This document shows positions 51-8,665 of a stretch of DNA of 8,665 nucleotides, in pieces. A program made the translations under genes and the position numbers. Every line of letters begins with the position of its first letter. Positions within the stretch are counted from its first letter, which is position 1. The notes below the pieces were generated by a model. That model saw nothing but the letters and a program-made list of their open reading frames with translations, searched no databases and had not been told where the DNA came from. The stretch lies in NCBI GenBank assembly GCA_016210895.1, contig JACQTG010000232.1, positions 1 to 8,665 of the forward strand, given 5' to 3'. Origin of the DNA: Acidobacteriota bacterium (lineage in GTDB: Bacteria > Acidobacteriota > Terriglobia > Acidoferrales > 2-02-FULL-67-57).

Positions 51-983
51 TCACGGCGTCGCCTTCTCCGGAAGCGAAGGGAGTTCGAGCGCTGTCTGTG
101 CGGGAGTCAGCCAGCGATGAGCCTGCCAACTGAGCATGACGCTCGCCGCCAGCAGTAGAGCCCCGAAGGTCACGTGCAACACGGTCAGGGCCACCGCCGC
201 CGGCTCGGGCTGCGGCGCGTCTTTCGTGGCCAGTCGAATCCAGTACGAGCCGACGCCCAGGCCCAGCTGCACACTGAGCAGAACCAGCAGCCACCGCGCT
301 GTGGTCCGGAGCGGCCCGGCGGCGAGATGGCGGCGATAGAGCGAAGCCAGCGCGGCGGCCACGGCGAGCGTGACCACCACAGCGCCTACCACATGGGCGG
401 CCACACCGACGGCACGGTGGCGCACAAGCGCTCCCAGCAGGAGTTGGAGAAAAATCGTCCCACTGGCCAGCAGGCACAGCCAGCTGACTCGTGGCAGGCC
501 TCGATCTTCGAACGGGTGAGCCGCGCGCTTCCAGCTCGGGGACGTTACCAGAGCAAGGCTGACGACGGCGCAAAAAAACAACTGCGCCAGGCAGGCGTGG
601 GCCACCGACACCGCCGTGGGCAGCAGAAACAAGACCGTGATCCCGCCCAGAACCCCCTGCATGATGACCGCCAGGAGAGCCAGAAGCCCCAGGCGGCGCA
701 CCCAGCGACGCGGTTCGCGTCGCCACAGCCAGATGGCCAAGATGATGGTGAGCAGCCCCACGAAACTTGCCACCATACGGTGGCCATGCTCGTAGAGAAT
801 GCCTCCCACCATCGGTGGCATCCAACTGCCGTACGACAGGGGCCAATCCGGCACTGCCAGACCGGCGTCATTGCTGGTAACGAGCGCGCCCGCCACCAGC
901 AACAGCCACGTGCTCCCGGCCACCATCAGCGCGAAACGGTGCAGGCCGAGATCGTCCGGGGTTGGCGTTGCGTCGTGCTTCAT
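51..983 (-). CDS. ctaA: Heme A synthase (CtaA/COX15 family)
   Basis: This integral membrane enzyme oxidises the C8 methyl of heme O to the formyl of heme A, the cofactor of aa3/caa3 oxidases. Numbering from an upstream GTG at 1031, the protein has about eight hydrophobic segments and the family signature LVTSNDAGLAVPDWPLSYGSW-like loop at 50-70. Catalytic or heme-binding residues appear in the expected helices: E81 and H84 (EHGHR), H145, H213 and H286. The E-x2-H spacing matches B. subtilis E57/H60. The extracellular cysteine pair of the Bacillus enzyme is absent (V60 and S67 occupy the equivalent loop). The ATG at 983 is preferred because the in-frame GTG at 1031 follows a stop codon directly and lacks a ribosome binding site. 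The ATG has only an AAGGG 14 bases upstream, so the start is not secure. The protein is 310 residues from ATG or 326 from GTG, both normal for the family. Confidence 0.9.
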   Translation of the reverse strand: MKHDATPTPDDLGLHRFALMVAGSTWLLLVAGALVTSNDAGLAVPDWPLSYGSWMPPMVGGILYEHGHRMVASFVGLLTIILAIWLWRREPRRWVRRLGLLALLAVIMQGVLGGITVLFLLPTAVSVAHACLAQLFFCAVVSLALVTSPSWKRAAHPFEDRGLPRVSWLCLLASGTIFLQLLLGALVRHRAVGVAAHVVGAVVVTLAVAAALASLYRRHLAAGPLRTTARWLLVLLSVQLGLGVGSYWIRLATKDAPQPEPAAVALTVLHVTFGALLLAASVMLSWQAHRWLTPAQTALELPSLPEKATP

Positions 984-1102
984 GGCTGAGGCATTTGCCC
1001 TTGGCGCAGGTGCCTTCGCTGTCCTAATCACTCACACCAAGAAGGAAAAAGCGCAGCGGGGATCGCGTTGCTCGAGCTTTTTGCTGGCGAGGGGGTAAGC
1101 AA

Positions 1103-1225: not shown

Positions 1226-2014
1226 TTAGTTCCCACCTGCACCCGCGAACGTGAACTCAACCGTCTTGCTCTCCTTGGCCGCCAGCGTAACCTTTTGCTG
1301 AAGCGTCCCGTACCGCTCGTGCCAGGCCTCGATGACGTATTCGCCCGGTGGCAACCCCTTGATTTCGAAGGCACCCTGCGGGCCCGTGACGGCGAAGAAC
1401 GGGTGCTTGAACACGCCGATGTAGCTCTTCATCCAGGGGTGCACGTTGCACTTGACGGGAACGGCCACTTCTTCGCGCGGGAAACTGCGCACCAGGTTCT
1501 CGCTCCCCGGCGGCATGGACGTGTTCCACTCGCGGTTATTTTTAGGCACGGGGTGAATATTGTGCGTGGTGGGATCGTTGTTCAGGATATGAATCTCCTG
1601 TCCCGTCTGCACGGCGGAGACGTGGGGGATATACAGACACCCCTTCTGATCCAGGACAGCGGGCTCACTGGGCGTCGGAAAAGAAACGTTCCCCAACCCC
1701 TCTTTGACGTAGACGAGCACGTAGCGCAGCGTCCTGTTTTCGTTCACGACTACTTCTTCCGACCGTACCGGTTCCTTGTGTACTTTCATGCAGGCGGCTT
1801 CCGTGTCCATCCGCAAAGCGGGCATCCGCGGCGGTGTTCCTTGAAAGCTGACCTTGCCCGTCACCGCGGCCGCCGTGGCCGGGTCAATCTGCGCCACCGG
1901 CGCCGCCTCGGGCGTCGGGCCTCCCTCGGAAGTAACCTCAGCCTCTTTCTTGCAGCCGACTGCGAACAGAAGCACCAGGGTTGTTGCCAAGCTTACGAGT
2001 TTTTCTTTCGTCAT
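1226..2014 (-). CDS. Cupredoxin-like lipoprotein with carboxypeptidase-regulatory-like C-terminal domain
   Basis: This is a 262-residue exported protein that probably binds copper and may carry electrons in the periplasm. From the ATG at 2014 there is a lysine-containing n-region, a hydrophobic stretch and a lipobox-like FAVGC with C21 as the likely lipidated cysteine. A Pro/Ala/Glu-rich linker follows (about 22-50). The middle (about 50-200) resembles a cupredoxin fold: a histidine loop TTHNIH (H151, H154) is followed by KCNVHPWM with C189, H192 and M195, the usual His, Cys-x2-His, Met order of type 1 copper sites. Two extra cysteines, C75 and C126, could form a disulfide. Residues 206-258 (AVTGPQGAFEIKGLPPGEY...) look like a CarboxypepD_reg beta-sandwich. 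Such proteins are often named methylamine utilization protein or hypothetical. The start is chosen because AAAGGTG lies 8 bases upstream and the signal peptide begins there; an in-frame extension to 2098 would overlap the upstream gene. The partner is inferred from position only. Confidence 0.82.
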   Translation of the reverse strand: MTKEKLVSLATTLVLLFAVGCKKEAEVTSEGGPTPEAAPVAQIDPATAAAVTGKVSFQGTPPRMPALRMDTEAACMKVHKEPVRSEEVVVNENRTLRYVLVYVKEGLGNVSFPTPSEPAVLDQKGCLYIPHVSAVQTGQEIHILNNDPTTHNIHPVPKNNREWNTSMPPGSENLVRSFPREEVAVPVKCNVHPWMKSYIGVFKHPFFAVTGPQGAFEIKGLPPGEYVIEAWHERYGTLQQKVTLAAKESKTVEFTFAGAGGN

Positions 2015-2057: not shown

Positions 2058-5000
2058 TCATTGCGATTGTACCAAATTTGCGCGCTCTCCGCCGGCACGG
2101 TTTGCGCTCGCGGCTCGGCCCGTTAGCAAGCGCTGTTCTTCCGGGGTGAACTGAAACATATAGCGCACGAGCAAGTCAGCATGATCGCCGCGGTAACCGC
2201 GGAAGCTTTCCGGGGTAGGGCCGGCGAACACCCAGCGGTTGCCCTCCCGCCGGAACAGCCCGGATGGCATGGAAGTTCCCGGCTGCATTCTGGCCGGATC
2301 GACGATCCAGCGCTCGGTCCAGGCGGGTTTCAAGCGCTCGGCCGCTAGGAGGAAATTCGGCGCTGTGGCGGTACGGTCGTGTGCCGGATCACCGGTGGCG
2401 TGACACCGCAAGCACGGCGCAGCCGGGTGGGTGAACAACTGCCGGGCCAGCATCCGCTCCTGGCCGGTCAAGGGCTCGAGCTTGGGCGGGATGTAAGGCA
2501 GCGGCTGAGTTGAGAGCGCCTGGAAGAAGCGCACCAGCTTGGCAATCTCTTCCGTCGAGAGATAGAAGGTAGGCATACGGGCGCGCAGGTAGGGACGCAC
2601 GCCGTTGCGATCCAACTGGGTTTCGCTCAGCGCGGGATTCTCAAGGAATTGCTTCATCCACTCTGGGTTCAGCCGCGCGCCGGCGCCGATCAGGCTGGGC
2701 GGCAACTGTTCCTTGCCTTCCGGAGTCTGGTATTGGGGCAAGCTCATCAGCACGGACTCTTGCCCGATGCGGACCTGGTGGCAGCCCACGCAGTTGTACT
2801 TGGTCGCGATCCACCAGCCGGCCTGGATGTCCTGGCGGTGGTCGGCGGGCTCGTAGCGGAGATGTTGCGGGATGGTCGGATCGACGCTGCCGAGCAGGAA
2901 GGTAGTCAGGGCCGTAACCTGCTCGGGGGTCAGATTGGGCGTCGGCATGCGCAAGCGCTCCCGCGGCTCCTTGACTTTGCCCTGGTCAAACGTGGCCGGG
3001 TTGGTGAGCTTCCGCTCGAAGAAACCCTTGTGGTCATACCACCTCCCGCGCGGCGACTTCGATCCATCGGGGAGGAGGCCGCGTTTGGCCTTCTCAGTGA
3101 GGAGGGCGAAATCGAGCCGCTCAATGGGCTTGCTGCCCTCGTTGGTCAACTCGGTTCCGATGCGGCCTTCCTCTTCGTAGCCCGCGATTTCGTGGCAGCC
3201 GGCGCAGCCATAGTGGCGCACGAGTTGGCGCCCGCGCCCTTTCAGTTCCGGGTCATCGAGGAAAGGAGCGCGCGGGTAGGTGCCCGGGTCCTCCTGCCGC
3301 AGCGTCAACAGGTAGCTGGCGATGTCGCGCGCCTCTTGCCAGGTGAGCCGCAGGCTCGGCATCACCGTCACCTGTTGGACTTGGAGTTCGTGGCCGTCGT
3401 TCGGACATTTGGAATGCTCGAGGTCGAAGACAAACGGTAATCCTTTGCGGGCATAGTCGCGCGGGCCGATGTCGCGCTTCTCGTAGGGGCAGTAGGGAAG
3501 CGTGCGCTCGCGCGGATTGTGAATCCAGCGTACGATGTAGTCGTAGTTGGCCTTCTCACCCAGGCGGCTCAAGTCGGCGGCAAAGTCTCCTCCCACGCCG
3601 CCCACGCTGTGGCAGGCCATGCAGCCGCGGCTCTCGAACAGTTCTTTGCCGCGCTGCGGGTTGCCGAGGGGCTGGCGGGGCAGGCGAGTCTGAATGCTGG
3701 ACTGCCAGATGAACGCACTAATGGCTTCGATTTCGTCCGCATCGAGTCGGAAGCGCGGCATCTTGGTGGTGGGCCGCCAGGCGTGGGGGTTTTCGAGCCA
3801 GACGGGAATCCATTCGGGGCGCAGTTTCAGCCGGATTTCTTTCAGGTTCGGGCCCACTTTTTTCTGGGCACGCAACAGGCCGCGGGAGCGGCGCTCCAGT
3901 TGTTCGATTTGGGCGTCAATGTTGCTGTTGGTGACCCGAAGGTTTTCCGCCTGCTGATAGTAGCGCTGGGCTTCCTGGTTGGTCTCGGCCTCATCGCCTT
4001 GCTGGATGCTGCGGGTGATTTCGAGCTCGTTCTGCTTGCCGGTCTTTTCCAGTTGCAGAACGTCCTGCTGGACCGCCTGCAGTTGCTCGGCCTCGTTATC
4101 GAAGCCTTCGTAGCGGTGGCAGCCGACGCAGCCGCGGAGGCGGAAGAGCGCTTTGCCTTCGTTCAACACGGAAGCATGCTCAAGGACAAAATCTTTGGCG
4201 TGGCACTGTTGGCAGCCGGCCTGGAAGTTTTCCCGGTAGAAGAGCGGCCACAGCCAGTACTTGTGTCGGCCGTGGCCCTTGGTGACGCTGGTGGTGGCGC
4301 GGCCGTTGCCGCCGTGGCAGGGTGAGCAGCCGAACTGCTCCGGGTCGTGAATCCGCAGGAGTTCGGGGGTGGGGTGGCTCGTGAACGGTGCGTCCGTACT
4401 CCGAGGCACCCCCAAGGCCGCCTTGGTCAAGGTGAGATTCGGCGGCACCAGGCCTTGGTCCATGCCCACGTGACACGACTGGCAGCGGTCGACCAGCACG
4501 GTTTCCGGGACGGCAAAATTTGCGGCCGACAGGACGTGGATTTGCCGGATACCGATTTCAAAACCTTCCATCTGCCGGGTGAGGCCATCCAGTTGTTGTT
4601 CCGCAAGTCCCACCAAGTGATCGTTCAGGTAGGTGTCGCGTTCGCGCCGCAAGCGGTTGGCCTCGGCCAGGAGCTCGGCACGCTGGGTCAGGAGTTGCGC
4701 CTTTTGGTCTTTCAAGCGGTTGAATTCGCCCTCGAGCTCCTCGTAGGTGAAGTTGGCGGTTTGGAGCGTGCCGTCGGCCTGCGGCAGCCGGACCTGAAAC
4801 GGTCCTCGCTTGACTTCTTCGATTTCGGCGCGCAGCTTTTTCTTGGCCGCCTCGCCGCCGGCGGTTTCCAGCTCGTACACCAGGGCCGTGACCTCTCCGC
4901 GGGCGGTTTGAAACGTATCCGTCAGGGCCGCGATCTGGTGCTCGACGAGCCGGGTCTGGCGGTCAATCTCATGCACGCGCGGCGCCACGGCCTGTTCGGC

Positions 5001-5270
5001 GGCCAGCATGGCTTGTTCCAGCCGCTGGAACTCAGCCGACTGGCGAACCGCAAGCTCGCGCCCGCGCTGCTCGGGCTTGAGCTTTTCGAGGTAGTCGGCG
5101 TAGAGAGCCTGGAAGCGTTTCTGATAGTCCTTCCAGGGGCGCAGCCCGTAGAACTCGTCGTAGAGCGCCCAGACGAGAGATGCCAGCAGGAGGAGCGAGG
5201 CGAGCAGAACCGGCCCGCTCATTGACTGGCTGGTAACTGGGTCTCTGTCCTGTGCGGGCGCGTCAGGCAC
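2058..5270 (-). CDS. Membrane-anchored octaheme c-type cytochrome with coiled-coil stalk
   Basis: This 1070-residue protein probably replaces cytochrome c1 as electron acceptor of the adjacent Rieske/cytochrome b complex. One N-terminal membrane helix (about 19-37) is followed by a predicted coiled coil rich in Leu, Glu, Gln and Arg (about 45-245), placing the rest in the periplasm. Eight CXXCH motifs start at C263, C315, C353, C381, C550, C689, C827 and C953. The first three are closely spaced and lack an obvious Met-Pro ligand, so they resemble a multiheme block. The last five each have a downstream Met-Pro (M504, M637, M775, M899, M1001), as in class I cytochrome c domains. A second Gln/Glu-rich helical segment (about 392-470) separates C381 from M504. 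A cysteine pair, C594 and C622 (YCPYEK, SKCPNDGHEL), sits between heme 5 and its Met. The GTG start has a GGAGG 6 bases upstream, better support than the ATG at 5222. It follows the cytochrome b gene by 33 bases. Its electron acceptor is unknown. Confidence 0.9.
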   Translation of the reverse strand: MPDAPAQDRDPVTSQSMSGPVLLASLLLLASLVWALYDEFYGLRPWKDYQKRFQALYADYLEKLKPEQRGRELAVRQSAEFQRLEQAMLAAEQAVAPRVHEIDRQTRLVEHQIAALTDTFQTARGEVTALVYELETAGGEAAKKKLRAEIEEVKRGPFQVRLPQADGTLQTANFTYEELEGEFNRLKDQKAQLLTQRAELLAEANRLRRERDTYLNDHLVGLAEQQLDGLTRQMEGFEIGIRQIHVLSAANFAVPETVLVDRCQSCHVGMDQGLVPPNLTLTKAALGVPRSTDAPFTSHPTPELLRIHDPEQFGCSPCHGGNGRATTSVTKGHGRHKYWLWPLFYRENFQAGCQQCHAKDFVLEHASVLNEGKALFRLRGCVGCHRYEGFDNEAEQLQAVQQDVLQLEKTGKQNELEITRSIQQGDEAETNQEAQRYYQQAENLRVTNSNIDAQIEQLERRSRGLLRAQKKVGPNLKEIRLKLRPEWIPVWLENPHAWRPTTKMPRFRLDADEIEAISAFIWQSSIQTRLPRQPLGNPQRGKELFESRGCMACHSVGGVGGDFAADLSRLGEKANYDYIVRWIHNPRERTLPYCPYEKRDIGPRDYARKGLPFVFDLEHSKCPNDGHELQVQQVTVMPSLRLTWQEARDIASYLLTLRQEDPGTYPRAPFLDDPELKGRGRQLVRHYGCAGCHEIAGYEEEGRIGTELTNEGSKPIERLDFALLTEKAKRGLLPDGSKSPRGRWYDHKGFFERKLTNPATFDQGKVKEPRERLRMPTPNLTPEQVTALTTFLLGSVDPTIPQHLRYEPADHRQDIQAGWWIATKYNCVGCHQVRIGQESVLMSLPQYQTPEGKEQLPPSLIGAGARLNPEWMKQFLENPALSETQLDRNGVRPYLRARMPTFYLSTEEIAKLVRFFQALSTQPLPYIPPKLEPLTGQERMLARQLFTHPAAPCLRCHATGDPAHDRTATAPNFLLAAERLKPAWTERWIVDPARMQPGTSMPSGLFRREGNRWVFAGPTPESFRGYRGDHADLLVRYMFQFTPEEQRLLTGRAASANRAGGERANLVQSQ

Positions 5271-5276
5271 CCCGGT

Positions 5277-5281
5277 CCTCC
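5277..5281 (-). promoter_or_regulatory. Ribosome binding site fixing a GTG start for the octaheme cytochrome
   Basis: GGAGG on the minus strand lies 6 bases before GTG at 5270. The alternative ATG at 5222 has no comparable motif, so the protein most likely begins MPDAPAQDRD, giving a 16-residue polar segment before the membrane helix. Confidence 0.7.
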
Positions 5282-5303
5282 AACGATTTCGTGGGTGACA
5301 ACC

Positions 5304-6239
5304 CTAGACGTTGAACCACGGCGTGACCCACACGTACTTGATGCGAAACAGCAGGCGAGCCAGCATCTTGACGGGCAGCCCCAGCATCGTGATCAACAAG
5401 AACTGCAGCGTCAGGTATTGGAGCAGGCTCATCCGCCGGTAGACCTTGCGGTTGAATTCGGTCAAGGTGATCAGCTTGTGGATGAGCCAGCCCGCCGCGG
5501 CGTAGTAGAGCCCCACCACGATGGCGCCAAAGATGATTTTTCCCCAGACACTGGTGATGCCGAGGATGTCGGGCAGGTCGCGGTTGACCTCGAAGACTAG
5601 GCGATTGTGATCCCAGGTCTGGCCGGGCCAGAACCACATCCAGCCGGGGCCGCGGATGAAGGTGCCGATGAAGATCATCGTCACCCAAAGCACGAGGAAG
5701 CCAAAGCAGAAGGCGAGGATGGCGAACTTGCGCTGGCGGAAGGTGTAGTAGCCGTTGCCGAGCGGGTTGGTGTCGAGGTAGGGAATGGCCATCAGGCCGA
5801 TGATGATCAGCGTCGGCATCAGCACGCCGGCAATCCACGGGTCGAAGTAGACCAGCATCTCCTGCAAGCCGAGGAAATACCAGGGCGCCTTGGCCGGGTT
5901 CATCGTCAGGTTCGGATTGGCCGGCTCTTCGAGCGGCGCGTTCAGCGTGATCGACCAGACCATCAAGATGAAGGTTACGATGATGGCGGCGAGAAATTCG
6001 ATTCGCATCAAAAACGGCCAGACGTGCACCTCGCGGTCCCAGCCGGGCTTGAAGGGAAAGGCCTTGCGGTGGTGGGTCTTGGCCATTTCCTGATTGGCTT
6101 CGAGCTGCGTCAGCAGGCGGTCGTTGGCCAGTGCTTGGCGGAATCCCATCCAGAAATAGAACGGAATCAGAAACAGCAGGGCAACGATGGGGACGTTGTC
6201 GGGTGCGGAAACAATCTCCCAGAGTTGGTGCCAGTCCAT
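5304..6239 (-). CDS. Cytochrome b C-terminal subunit (subunit IV-like, carries Qo motif)
   Basis: This 311-residue membrane protein corresponds to the C-terminal half of cytochrome b and completes the quinol oxidation site with the heme-bearing subunit encoded just upstream. It is nearly twice the length of chloroplast subunit IV. About six hydrophobic segments can be seen, near 17-31, 82-98, 135-153, 172-194, 234-254 and 272-290. The Qo signature lies at 115-127 as PAKAPWYFLGLQEML, so the usual PEWY is APWY here (118-121). A WMWFWPGQTWDHN motif at 200-212 lies in the loop after the fourth segment. AGAGGG is placed 5 bases before the ATG. The stop codon of the preceding cytochrome b gene is 28 bases upstream, consistent with cotranscription. 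No heme-b ligand pair is expected or seen in this subunit. Confidence 0.9.
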   Translation of the reverse strand: MDWHQLWEIVSAPDNVPIVALLFLIPFYFWMGFRQALANDRLLTQLEANQEMAKTHHRKAFPFKPGWDREVHVWPFLMRIEFLAAIIVTFILMVWSITLNAPLEEPANPNLTMNPAKAPWYFLGLQEMLVYFDPWIAGVLMPTLIIIGLMAIPYLDTNPLGNGYYTFRQRKFAILAFCFGFLVLWVTMIFIGTFIRGPGWMWFWPGQTWDHNRLVFEVNRDLPDILGITSVWGKIIFGAIVVGLYYAAAGWLIHKLITLTEFNRKVYRRMSLLQYLTLQFLLITMLGLPVKMLARLLFRIKYVWVTPWFNV

Positions 6240-6267
6240 CTCAGCCCTCTCTTGCTTCCACCTTTCG

Positions 6268-7209
6268 CTAGTCGCGTCGCGTCCCGCTCGGGATCATCAC
6301 CACCGGCGCGTCTTTCCGCTCTTCTCGGATCTCGGACTCCAGCATGATGGAGTTCGGGCCGGAGATGCCGCCGTCCTTGCGCACGCGCCAGAAATGCACG
6401 CCCATGAAGATGGCCGCCAGCAGGGGGATGGCGATGCAGTGCCAGATGTAGGCCCGGAGGAGCGCATTCGAGTCCACAATCGAGCCGCCCAGCAAGGCAA
6501 AGCGCACGTCGTTGTAAGGGGTCATACCCAATTCGAGCCCGAAGGGACCTTCGGATCCGAGTAATGGCGTCGCGCGCGCCATGCTCGTGCCCACCGTCAC
6601 CGCCCAGAAGCCCAACTGGTCGTCTGGCAGCAGGTAGCCAGTGAACGAGAGCAACAGGGTCAGCACAAGCAGGACGACACCGACACACCAATTGAACTCG
6701 CGCGGCCGCTTGTAGGAGCCGGTCAGGAAGACCCGGAACATGTGGAGCCAGACGGTGATGATCATCAGGTGGGCGGCCCAGCGGTGCATGTTGCGCAGGA
6801 GCTTCCCGAAGGGCACGTCGTGCTCGAGATAGAGAATGTCCCGGAAGGCCTGTACCTTGGTGGGATGGTAGTAGAACATCAGCAGCACCCCGGTGAACGT
6901 CAGCACGATGAAGAGGTAAAAGGTGATGCCGCCCATCCCCCAGGTGTAGCTGTAGCGCACGGCGTCGCGGTTGATCTTGGCCGGGTGGAGGTGGAAAAAA
7001 ACGTTCGTTAGGACGCCAAGGGCGCGGTTCCGCGGCTGCTCGTCGTGCTTGACGCGGAACATCGAGCGCCAGAGTTGCGTCTTCTGCGGGTCCTTGAGCG
7101 ACTCGGCTTCTCCCCGGACTTTCTCCTTCAGAACCTTGGTCTTCTCCTGTATGTTGTCGAGCAGGGCGGTCAAGCGGTTTCGGCCGCGTTCGTTTTTTTC
7201 TTCACTCAT
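6268..7209 (-). CDS. qcrB: Cytochrome b N-terminal subunit (b6-like, di-heme b)
   Basis: This 313-residue protein binds the two b hemes of the quinol oxidoreductase. The ligand pairs are H142/H156 (MHRWAAH...WLHMFR) and H257/H272 (WHCIAIPLL...GVHFWR). Their spacings, 14 and 15 residues, equal those of chloroplast cytochrome b6 (H86/H100, H187/H202). The RKDGGISGP sequence after the fourth helix is also b6-like. The position matching b6 Cys35, which anchors heme c(n), is G91 here: both lie 51 residues before the first histidine and are followed by a similar GGIT. A charged, probably helical cytoplasmic N-terminus of about 75 residues is longer than in b6. The ATG has a GGGGG-type purine run 5 bases upstream. 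It sits 52 bases after the Rieske gene and 28 before the C-terminal cytochrome b gene. The name qcrB is used for family membership; petB would be equally defensible. Confidence 0.92.
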   Translation of the reverse strand: MSEEKNERGRNRLTALLDNIQEKTKVLKEKVRGEAESLKDPQKTQLWRSMFRVKHDEQPRNRALGVLTNVFFHLHPAKINRDAVRYSYTWGMGGITFYLFIVLTFTGVLLMFYYHPTKVQAFRDILYLEHDVPFGKLLRNMHRWAAHLMIITVWLHMFRVFLTGSYKRPREFNWCVGVVLLVLTLLLSFTGYLLPDDQLGFWAVTVGTSMARATPLLGSEGPFGLELGMTPYNDVRFALLGGSIVDSNALLRAYIWHCIAIPLLAAIFMGVHFWRVRKDGGISGPNSIMLESEIREERKDAPVVMIPSGTRRD

Positions 7210-7261
7210 TCTTTCCCCCGCAGGGCGCCATTCGCCCGAAAGAGGTCAGCCGTCTTGCGCC

Positions 7262-7870
7262 TCAGGCAATCAAGTAGGCGTCCGGGTCGTTGAAATGGTT
7301 TGTTCCGCCTTTTGGCCACTGATACAGCTTGCTGACGTCTACGACGATCTGCCCGGTGGCGTCGAGTTTGACGTGGGCGCGGTCCATCGGCCGCGGCGCC
7401 GGGCCCTCAAAATTGATCCCTTCGCTGTCGTAGCCACTGCCGTGGCACGGGCACTTGAACTTGTTCTCGCTCTCTTTCCAGTCCGGCGTACAGCCCAGGT
7501 GCGTGCAGCGGGCGTAAATCACGAACAGCCGCTCGGCATTCCGCACCACCCAAATCCGATACCCCTGCTGGAAACGCGTGTCCACGCCGAGGCCAAAATC
7601 CGACGGGTAGCCGACCGAGAAGACGGTCTTGGGTTCGAAGAGGGCGCGGGGGAAGAAGAACCGGAGAAACATCAGGAAGTTCACCCCCAAGTAGCCCCAG
7701 ATACACGCCCAGATGAAGCGGCGGCGCATCCGCCGCACTTCTTTCTGGCCGGTCTCGCCCGTCACCGCCGTCGCTGGCGGTCTGACGAATGCCTTGAGCA
7801 AGCCACGCAAGCCGGCCCAGAATCCAGGTGCCTTTTTAGGGACCGCCTTGTCAACCTGTGTGTCGGCCAT
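7262..7870 (-). CDS. qcrA: Rieske 2Fe-2S protein of the bc complex
   Basis: This 202-residue protein carries the high-potential 2Fe-2S cluster that takes the first electron from quinol. Box I is CTHLGC at 122-127 and box II is CPCHGSGY at 140-147; C122, H124, C140 and H143 would bind the cluster and C127/C142 would form the stabilising disulfide. Both the box II Ser (S145) and Tyr (Y147) linked to high redox potential are present. One membrane helix spans about 52-73, preceded by RRMRRRFIW, which could act as an uncleaved twin-arginine export signal. The ATG directly follows an in-frame TAG and has no strong ribosome binding site within 10 bases. The gene is the first after the promoter at the hemH stop codon and begins the complex operon. 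Confidence 0.95.
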   Translation of the reverse strand: MADTQVDKAVPKKAPGFWAGLRGLLKAFVRPPATAVTGETGQKEVRRMRRRFIWACIWGYLGVNFLMFLRFFFPRALFEPKTVFSVGYPSDFGLGVDTRFQQGYRIWVVRNAERLFVIYARCTHLGCTPDWKESENKFKCPCHGSGYDSEGINFEGPAPRPMDRAHVKLDATGQIVVDVSKLYQWPKGGTNHFNDPDAYLIA

Positions 7871-7912: not shown

Positions 7913-7941
7913 TTTATAGTCGCTGCACCAAACTCTGTCAA
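7913..7941 (-). promoter_or_regulatory. Sigma-70-like promoter overlapping the hemH stop codon
   Basis: On the minus strand TTGACA (7936-7941) is followed by exactly 17 bases and then TATAAA (7913-7918). The -35 matches the consensus fully and the -10 in five of six positions. The -35 element contains the TGA stop codon of hemH. Transcription would start near 7906, leaving a leader of about 36 bases before the Rieske ATG. The AT-rich stretch right after the -10 stands out from the GC-rich surroundings. This would let the respiratory complex be expressed separately from hemH. No operator-like repeat is evident. Confidence 0.6.
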
Positions 7942-8665
7942 GCAAACTCGAAACCCGGCGAGACGGTTTCTCCCACGGCTGCGCGCACCAACTCGGCCAG
8001 AGCCTGGATGAAGGTGGGAGAATCATTGAGTCCAGGCATCAGGGCGAACTGCCGAAGGCCAAGCGTCTGCGCCAGGGCGCGGGCCACGCCGTCAATTTCG
8101 TGGAGTGTCTCGATGTGGTCGGAGACAAAGGAAATCGGCACGACTAAGACGTTTTGCGCACCTTGGCTGGCGAGCCGGTCCAGCGTGCTTTCGAGCCGTG
8201 GCTGCAGCCAGCGCCCGGGCCCCACCTTGCTTTGATAGCAAACGTGATAGGGATAGCTCCAGCGTCCCTGCTTCATTACCAGTTCGACTGAGGCTTTGAC
8301 CTGGGCCTCGTAGGGGTCACCCTGCGCCACCACATCGGCGGGAATCCCATGCGCGCTGAACACAAGATGAAGCGGCCCCGAACCTGCGAACGGCTCAAGT
8401 GCCTGCTCGATTCGCTCCACCACCGCTTGGATGAAGCGGGAATGGTCGTAAAAGTGCCGAATCACTTTGACCGGGAGATAGTTTTTGGCTCGCCGGGCAT
8501 ACTGCCGGTTCCACTCATTCAGGCTGCTTCCGGTTGTGACCTTCGAGTATTGAGGGTATAGAGGCAGCAGAATGATTTCCGCGCAGGCGTCCAGGTTAAG
8601 CGTGCAGATGGCTTCTTCCGTCAGCGGGTGCCAGTAGCGCATCGCCACCACGACCTGTGCATCCA
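7938..8665 (-). CDS. hemH: Ferrochelatase, C-terminal part (5' end outside window)
   Basis: Ferrochelatase inserts ferrous iron into a porphyrin to make heme. The visible 242 residues are open to the right edge; the first readable codons are DAQVVVAMRYWHP, matching the conserved MRYWHP region. Other family motifs follow in order: LPLYPQYSKVTTGSS, FSAHGIP with the metal-site histidine, CYQSKVGPGRWLQP, and VPISFVSDHIETLHEID with the conserved active-site glutamate. Compared with the usual 310-350 residues, roughly 90 N-terminal residues lie outside the window. A GTG at 8651 is internal to the conserved core and is not a start. The gene is followed by the respiratory complex genes on the same strand after 67 bases, and no intrinsic terminator separates them. 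Confidence 0.95.
   Translation of the reverse strand, partial: DAQVVVAMRYWHPLTEEAICTLNLDACAEIILLPLYPQYSKVTTGSSLNEWNRQYARRAKNYLPVKVIRHFYDHSRFIQAVVERIEQALEPFAGSGPLHLVFSAHGIPADVVAQGDPYEAQVKASVELVMKQGRWSYPYHVCYQSKVGPGRWLQPRLESTLDRLASQGAQNVLVVPISFVSDHIETLHEIDGVARALAQTLGLRQFALMPGLNDSPTFIQALAELVRAAVGETVSPGFEFA

What the first reader, a model, noticed from the sequence alone, without database searches (positions are those of the whole stretch)
2058..7870. bc-type complex that appears to use an octaheme, coiled-coil cytochrome instead of cytochrome c1
Rieske, split cytochrome b and a 1070-residue c-type cytochrome follow each other with gaps of 28-52 bases, and no mono- or diheme c1/cytochrome f gene is present between them. 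The eight CXXCH motifs and single N-terminal anchor are seen directly. That this protein is the complex's c subunit is inferred from gene order. Such a subunit would give an electron wire far longer than c1 and could bypass a soluble cytochrome c.
Basis: partly seen in the sequence, partly recalled or inferred. Interest (0 to 1): 0.72.

Follow-up and report, generated by a model that had tools for sequence, protein, structure and literature searches.

The report
Respiratory complex with an eight-heme wire
A bacterium related to Acidobacteriota appears to build its quinol-oxidising respiratory complex with a large eight-heme cytochrome in place of the usual one-heme subunit, encoded beside a membrane-anchored blue copper protein and a heme-A gene, which suggests a wired path from quinol towards oxygen; complexes of this general kind are already described in other bacteria.

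Summary
Confirmed: Rieske, b6-type cytochrome b, a subunit-IV-like protein and an octaheme, single-anchor, coiled-coil cytochrome lie head to tail, with no other c-type gene between. The order is conserved: where enough DNA is held, the subunit-IV-like gene precedes the octaheme in 34 of 34 member loci, cytochrome b in 31 of 31, Rieske in 30 of 30. In 79 of 79 aligned octahemes, down to 27% identity, eight CXXCH and eight further ligands (3 His, 5 Met) are invariant. A cytochrome c1 model finds nothing in 23 carrier genomes. Best reading: a b6f-like quinol oxidase whose c subunit is an eight-heme relay, probably passing electrons to the blue copper protein or directly to CuA. The kind is known: such operons are published for Nitrospina, Kuenenia and Methylomirabilis, and the window's Rieske is 54% identical to Kuenenia Kustd1480. 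New are the acidobacterial form, the copper protein, the oxidase linkage and the missing heme-cn cysteine. Bypass of soluble cytochrome c is not shown.

The parts
7262..7870 (-). Rieske [2Fe-2S] protein; CTHLGC...CPCHGSGY cluster motif
   Evidence: PF00355 E 2e-9; best solved relative is Kuenenia Kustd1480 (9rk3), E 1.3e-39, 54% identity over 105 aa; cluster Cys/His in 31 of 31 rows
6268..7209 (-). b6-type cytochrome b, N-terminal half, four heme-b histidines (H142, H156, H257, H272); the heme-cn cysteine of b6 is Gly91 here
   Evidence: PF00033 E 2e-40; best solved relatives are b6 of b6f complexes; the histidines are invariant in 31-32 rows
5304..6239 (-). Subunit-IV-like C-terminal half of cytochrome b, enlarged, with APWY in place of PEWY at the Qo site
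   Evidence: PF00032 E 9e-6; subunit IV of b6f E 1e-4; APWY in 32 of 32 rows with letters
2058..5270 (-). Octaheme c-type cytochrome, 1070 aa: N-terminal membrane anchor, long helical hairpins, three probable bis-His hemes (CXXCH 263, 315, 353), five probable His/Met hemes (381, 550, 689, 827, 953)
   Evidence: eight CXXCH and eight distal ligands invariant in 79 of 79; AlphaFold2 pLDDT 86, pTM 0.79
1226..2014 (-). Cupredoxin lipoprotein (262 aa from ATG at 2014; the mechanical ORF runs to 2098): lipobox Cys21, type-1 copper ligands H151 or H154, C189, H192, M195, plus a carboxypeptidase-regulatory-like domain
51..1031 (-). Heme A synthase CtaA
   Evidence: PF02628 E 1e-24; found downstream in 28 of 33 loci with at least 2.5 kb
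7938..8663 (-). Ferrochelatase HemH, cut by the window edge (neighbour, perhaps co-transcribed)
   Evidence: PF00762 E 2e-79; next to Rieske also in L015, L017, L018

Best explanation
This is a quinol-oxidising Rieske/cytochrome b complex of the b6f-like (split b) type. Its c subunit is not cytochrome c1 or f but an octaheme cytochrome anchored by one N-terminal helix, with helical hairpins that probably clasp the complex. SHOWN: gene order, eight heme sites and eight invariant distal ligands, the adjacent cupredoxin with intact type-1 copper ligands, and, in part of the relatives, a linked CuA-type aa3 oxidase with no heme c of its own. INFERRED: the Rieske head reduces one of the membrane-near hemes; the electron runs along the heme chain; it leaves through the membrane-anchored blue copper protein, or directly, to CuA of an aa3 oxidase and to O2; cytochrome b returns the second electron through the Q cycle. 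So the operon probably encodes a large part of a quinol-to-oxygen chain, related to the Kuenenia Kustd1480-1485 type but turned to aerobic respiration.
For: Synteny: subunit-IV-like gene in 34 of 34, cytochrome b in 31 of 31 and Rieske in 30 of 30 member loci with enough upstream DNA, including an Omnitrophota locus whose octaheme is about 27% identical (L037). Eight CXXCH in 240 of 240 listed proteins, the two queries included. In 79 of 79 aligned sequences the invariant His and Met are the eight CXXCH His plus H299, H308, H333, M504, M637, M775, M899, M1001. PF02167 (c1): 0 of 23 carrier genomes, while the control set rings in Caulobacter. Cupredoxin within 600 bp in 33 of 36 loci, copper ligands in 36 of 36 rows, plastocyanin fold. 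coxA downstream in 11 of 23 loci with at least 5 kb. In a second draw COX1 lies in the same cluster in 6 of 10 genomes, in two different orders. In one single-contig chromosome (G009) the only COX1 match is the linked one. CoxB has the CuA motif and no CXXCH in 15 of 15 octaheme-linked cases. Rieske close to Kustd1480; PMC12954380 reports +335 mV for Kustd1480 and a model in which long helices of Kustd1485 wrap the complex.
Against: No protein evidence of assembly. In G131 octaheme, cupredoxin and ctaA lie on a different contig from Rieske/b/subunit IV. In 12 of 23 loci with at least 5 kb downstream no coxA follows. The two loci nearest to the window disagree: L018 (whole octaheme, 67% identical) has none within 7.4 kb, L036 (a fragment, 71% over its part) has coxB and coxA. 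The window ends at ctaA, so an oxidase link is not shown for the window itself. G009 encodes a small signal-peptide cytochrome c of about 100 residues that could be the carrier. The PEWY glutamate of the Qo site is not conserved (APWY), so a standard Qo site cannot be taken for granted. Structure searches with the octaheme model gave only generic helices.
Confidence: 0.7

Rival explanations
1. The octaheme is the c subunit, but it hands electrons to an ordinary soluble cytochrome c, which then feeds the oxidase; the cupredoxin is a copper chaperone or does something else.
For: G009 encodes a small stand-alone cytochrome c with signal peptide. CoxB keeps a normal CuA site and no own heme. In L003 no cupredoxin was found although coxB and coxA follow.
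Against: No small cytochrome c gene lies among the window genes. The cupredoxin is within 600 bp in 33 of 36 loci with its copper ligands kept in 36 of 36 rows, and stays with the octaheme in the split genome G131.
Confidence: 0.35
2. The octaheme serves another acceptor, for example an outer-membrane or extracellular metal, and is only co-expressed with the Rieske/b complex.
For: Weak similarity, just below the cut-off, to MtrC/MtrF-type domains in the N-terminal multiheme part (PF22113 E 6e-7, 29.7 bits against 30). The best NCBIfam model of the cytochrome b is ExtP of a Geobacter selenite/tellurite operon, also below its cut-off (264 against 290 bits).
Against: N-terminal membrane anchor, no porin family among the seven window proteins, a heme A gene and in part of the relatives an aa3 oxidase in the same cluster, five His/Met class-I-like hemes.
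Confidence: 0.1
3. The complex works as proposed for anammox bacteria, splitting electrons towards NAD(P)H.
For: The closest solved Rieske is Kustd1480, whose complex carries a putative NAD(P) oxidoreductase (PMC12954380, passages).
Against: None of the seven window proteins matches an NAD(P) oxidoreductase family; in the relatives this was not searched for. The heme-cn cysteine is Gly in 29 of 30 rows with letters. Linkage, where seen, is to an oxidase.
Confidence: 0.05

Closest known systems
Rieske/split cytochrome b/octaheme operon of Nitrospina gracilis, Kuenenia stuttgartiensis and Methylomirabilis oxyfera (PMC3578206, passages seen)
   Same: Fe-S subunit, split b of b6f type, and an atypical octaheme cytochrome as the only neighbouring c subunit
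   Different: The passages seen name no cupredoxin or oxidase linkage for that operon; homology of its octaheme to the one here was not tested because its sequence was not reached
Kuenenia Kustd1480-1485 complex (PMC12954380, abstract and passages seen; Rieske structure 9rk3)
   Same: Rieske 54% identical over 105 residues; b6-like cytochrome b, enlarged subunit IV, large multiheme c with long helices
   Different: The Kuenenia complex has a putative NAD(P) oxidoreductase and heme cn; the window shows neither, and carries a blue copper protein and a heme A gene
Actinobacterial bcc-aa3 obligate supercomplex (PMC8361435, passages seen)
   Same: Works alike if the inferred path is right: extra c heme on complex III hands electrons to the oxidase without a soluble cytochrome c
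   Different: Diheme cytochrome and (recalled) unsplit b; not a member
Acidobacterial bc1-A1 oxidase superoperon (PMC8407424, passages seen)
   Same: Complex III and A1 oxidase genes adjacent; oxidase-then-bc is also the order in L049 and L050

Membership tests
Cytochrome b6f complex | Cytochrome b6 with two bis-His hemes plus separate subunit IV | tested here: met
Cytochrome b6f complex | Cys35 of b6 that holds heme cn | tested here: not met
   Cys35 aligns with Gly91; Gly in 29 of 30 rows with letters, Cys only in L037. So it works like a b6f core but is not filed as a b6f complex
Cytochrome b6f complex | Cytochrome f | tested here: not met
   No cytochrome f family match among the seven window proteins; the rest of the genome is not held
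Cytochrome bc1 complex | Cytochrome c1 (PF02167) | tested here: not met
   0 of 23 carrier genomes; the octaheme does not match PF02167
Rieske/split-b/octaheme complexes (Nitrospina, Kuenenia, Methylomirabilis) | Rieske, split b and an octaheme as only neighbouring c subunit | tested here: met
Rieske/split-b/octaheme complexes (Nitrospina, Kuenenia, Methylomirabilis) | Sequence homology of the octaheme to Kustd1485 or the Nitrospina protein | not tested
   Those names did not appear among the 120 rows listed by each; only the Rieske subunit could be compared
Type-1 (blue) copper protein | Cupredoxin fold with His, Cys, His, Met ligands | tested here: met
   copper binding itself untested
Complex III-IV supercomplex | Physical association with aa3 oxidase, no soluble carrier needed | not testable with these tools
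   Gene linkage only

The most novel reading that the evidence does not exclude
A whole-chain quinol:O2 machine: b6f-like core, eight-heme wire, tethered blue copper relay and aa3 oxidase act as one carrier-free supercomplex in Acidobacteriota, with copper instead of cytochrome c as the last relay before CuA.
Probability: 0.33. Interest if true: 0.72.

Novelty: new variant of a known kind. Interest (0 to 1): 0.5.

Why it matters
Complex III usually has a one-heme or two-heme exit subunit. A deeply conserved eight-heme exit subunit, with a pattern of three His and five Met distal ligands kept from Acidobacteriota to Omnitrophota, next to a blue copper protein and a heme A gene, makes the question 'why so many hemes?' (called not entirely clear for the anammox relatives in PMC12954380) approachable in aerobic bacteria, if a cultured carrier is found (not checked here).

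Tried and rejected
Looking for the window's own genome: none is held. Solved structures of the octaheme by sequence: none at E 0.01; of the cupredoxin: only a purple cupredoxin at E 0.77. Fold searches with the octaheme model: no Foldseek match at E 0.001 and only helical hairpins in the second look; this does not show a new fold. Rejected: a cytochrome c1 hidden elsewhere (0 of 23 genomes); an HAO-like octaheme (no such family; a weak PF13435 cytochrome c554 match at E 0.014 was not followed); caa3 oxidase as partner (CoxB without CXXCH in 15 of 15 linked cases, whereas the CoxB near a Rieske/b cluster with at least four c hemes, L043, has one). A homology test against the Kustd1485, Nitrospina and Methylomirabilis octahemes could not be made. 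Modelling of the complex with hemes was not available. Paper searches for an acidobacterial octaheme complex listed none that I recognised by title, abstract start or passages; this covers only the held open-licence library. Known limits: 39 loci from one scan, one of them (L039) dropped as a non-member; L026 and L027 and L003 carry broken frames in octaheme, subunit IV or cytochrome b and were counted as present; alignments hold fragments. The second draw shares G009 with the first set; L047-L050 are not near-identical to the first loci, the other draws were not compared. I asked for completeness 90, but the answer shows no completeness values.
Full report
What is there. On the - strand of the window seven genes follow each other: ferrochelatase (cut by the edge), Rieske, cytochrome b6-like, subunit-IV-like, octaheme cytochrome, a lipoprotein, and heme A synthase.

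The octaheme. The closest listed relatives are 72% identical; where a source names an organism it is mostly Acidobacteria or Terriglobia, once Candidatus Xenobia. That search scored 4242 relatives at E 0.001 and listed 120; the one with the Omnitrophota protein scored 806 and listed 120. All 240 listed proteins, the two queries included, have exactly eight CXXCH. An alignment of 79 sequences, 24 of them from the second search at 27-31% identity, gives a clean picture: eight CXXCH, three invariant further His (299, 308, 333) and five invariant Met (504, 637, 775, 899, 1001). No other His or Met reaches 95%, and none of the 79 sequences breaks any of these sites. That the His serve hemes 263, 315 and 353 and the Met serve 381, 550, 689, 827 and 953 is my inference from order and domain type. 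AlphaFold2 gives a confident model (pLDDT 86, pTM 0.79) with an anchor helix and long helical hairpins at 45-218 and 393-468; fold searches returned only generic helices.

Linkage. Of 39 loci from one genome scan, one (L039, 24% identity, five CXXCH) is a distant cytochrome and was dropped. Among the 38 others, those whose DNA ends too near were set aside: the subunit-IV-like gene precedes the octaheme in 34 of 34, cytochrome b in 31 of 31, Rieske in 30 of 30. In a second draw of 119 genomes from the phylum of G009, 10 carry the octaheme at E 1e-60, G009 itself included; cytochrome b is adjacent in 9 of 10 (G009, the others). The exception, G131, has Rieske, b, IV, a ctaA-like frame, ctaB, coxB, coxA and coxC on one contig and octaheme, cupredoxin and ctaA at the end of another; I cannot tell a true split from an assembly fault. 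Cytochrome c1 (PF02167) is not found in 23 of 23 carrier genomes while the control Caulobacter rings; most of these genomes are drafts of unknown completeness.

Which Rieske/b type. Cytochrome b is closest to b6 among solved structures, but the cysteine that holds heme cn in b6f is Gly91 here and Gly in 29 of 30 rows with letters; L037 from Omnitrophota keeps Cys. The Qo motif of the subunit-IV-like protein is APWY in 32 of 32 rows with letters, not PEWY. The Rieske protein is nearest to Kuenenia Kustd1480 (9rk3; E 1.3e-39 against 6e-24 for the other Kuenenia Rieske and 4e-16 for the first b6f entry), 54% identical over 105 residues. It has the Ser and Tyr beside the cluster that PMC12954380 links with high potential; a high potential here is inference.

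The oxidase. ctaA follows in 28 of 33 loci with at least 2.5 kb and ctaB in 29 of 32 with at least 3 kb. coxA lies downstream on the same strand in 11 of 23 loci with at least 5 kb of DNA, plus L003 and L036 with less. In the second draw COX1 is in the same cluster in 6 of 10 genomes, four downstream and two upstream of Rieske. CoxB has the full CuA motif and no CXXCH in 15 of 15 octaheme-linked cases. In G009, a single 5.1 Mb contig, the linked COX1 is the only match. Against: 12 of 23 loci have no coxA downstream, among them L018 (67% identity over the whole octaheme), while L036 (71% over a fragment) has it. For the window itself only ctaA is shown.

How it most likely works. Quinol is oxidised at Qo; one electron goes through cytochrome b, the other through the Rieske head to a membrane-near heme of the octaheme, along its chain, and out to the tethered blue copper protein or directly to CuA. 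The first half follows from established bc/b6f chemistry; the second half is inferred from gene linkage. G009 also encodes a small cytochrome c of about 100 residues, so a soluble carrier is not excluded.

What is known. PMC3578206 (passages) states that Nitrospina has a split-b operon whose only neighbouring c subunit is an atypical octaheme, and that Kuenenia and Methylomirabilis share this operon structure. PMC12954380 (abstract and passages) models Kustd1480-1485 with a large multiheme cytochrome whose helices wrap the complex, and calls the need for so many hemes not entirely clear. PMC4683180 (passages) reports pentaheme cytochromes beside a Rieske/b complex of Methanoperedens. PMC8407424 (passages) describes bc1-oxidase superoperons in Acidobacteria without an octaheme in the passages seen. 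So the principle is published; the acidobacterial form with copper protein, oxidase linkage and no heme-cn cysteine is the new part, as far as reach.

Noticed in passing
L040 2956-6986, L041 2612-6614, L052 5544-9574 (G004, G010, G121): A second kind of Rieske/b cluster in the same genomes, with a shorter eight-CXXCH cytochrome (717-859 aa frames) and, about 2 kb away, another cupredoxin-like gene.
   Followed up: partly
L042 2528-7391; L051 2958-6781; L045 3884-6958; L043 8512-11336; L044 3977-6219: Further Rieske/b clusters whose c partner has 10, 7, 5, at least 4 (cut by the contig end) CXXCH, or is fused to cytochrome b with 2: a series of heme counts on one core.
   Followed up: partly
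window 6985-6993 (cytochrome b H73, H75): An HLHP motif before the first helix of cytochrome b is kept in 30-31 of 31 rows; PMC12954380 proposes an extra inter-monomer heme b on His62 of Kustd1481. Whether the residues correspond was not tested.
   Followed up: no
window 5304-6239 (residues 118-121): APWY instead of PEWY at the Qo site in 32 of 32 rows, Omnitrophota included; Glu127 nearby is invariant.
   Followed up: no
L029 21170-21637 and other loci: A DUF420 gene recurs downstream of ctaB even where coxA is not adjacent, which may point to oxidase maturation (role recalled, not tested).
   Followed up: no
L047 and L048 (G131): Octaheme, cupredoxin and ctaA on a different contig from Rieske/b/IV/cox genes: relocation of octaheme plus copper protein together, or an assembly fault.
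   Followed up: partly
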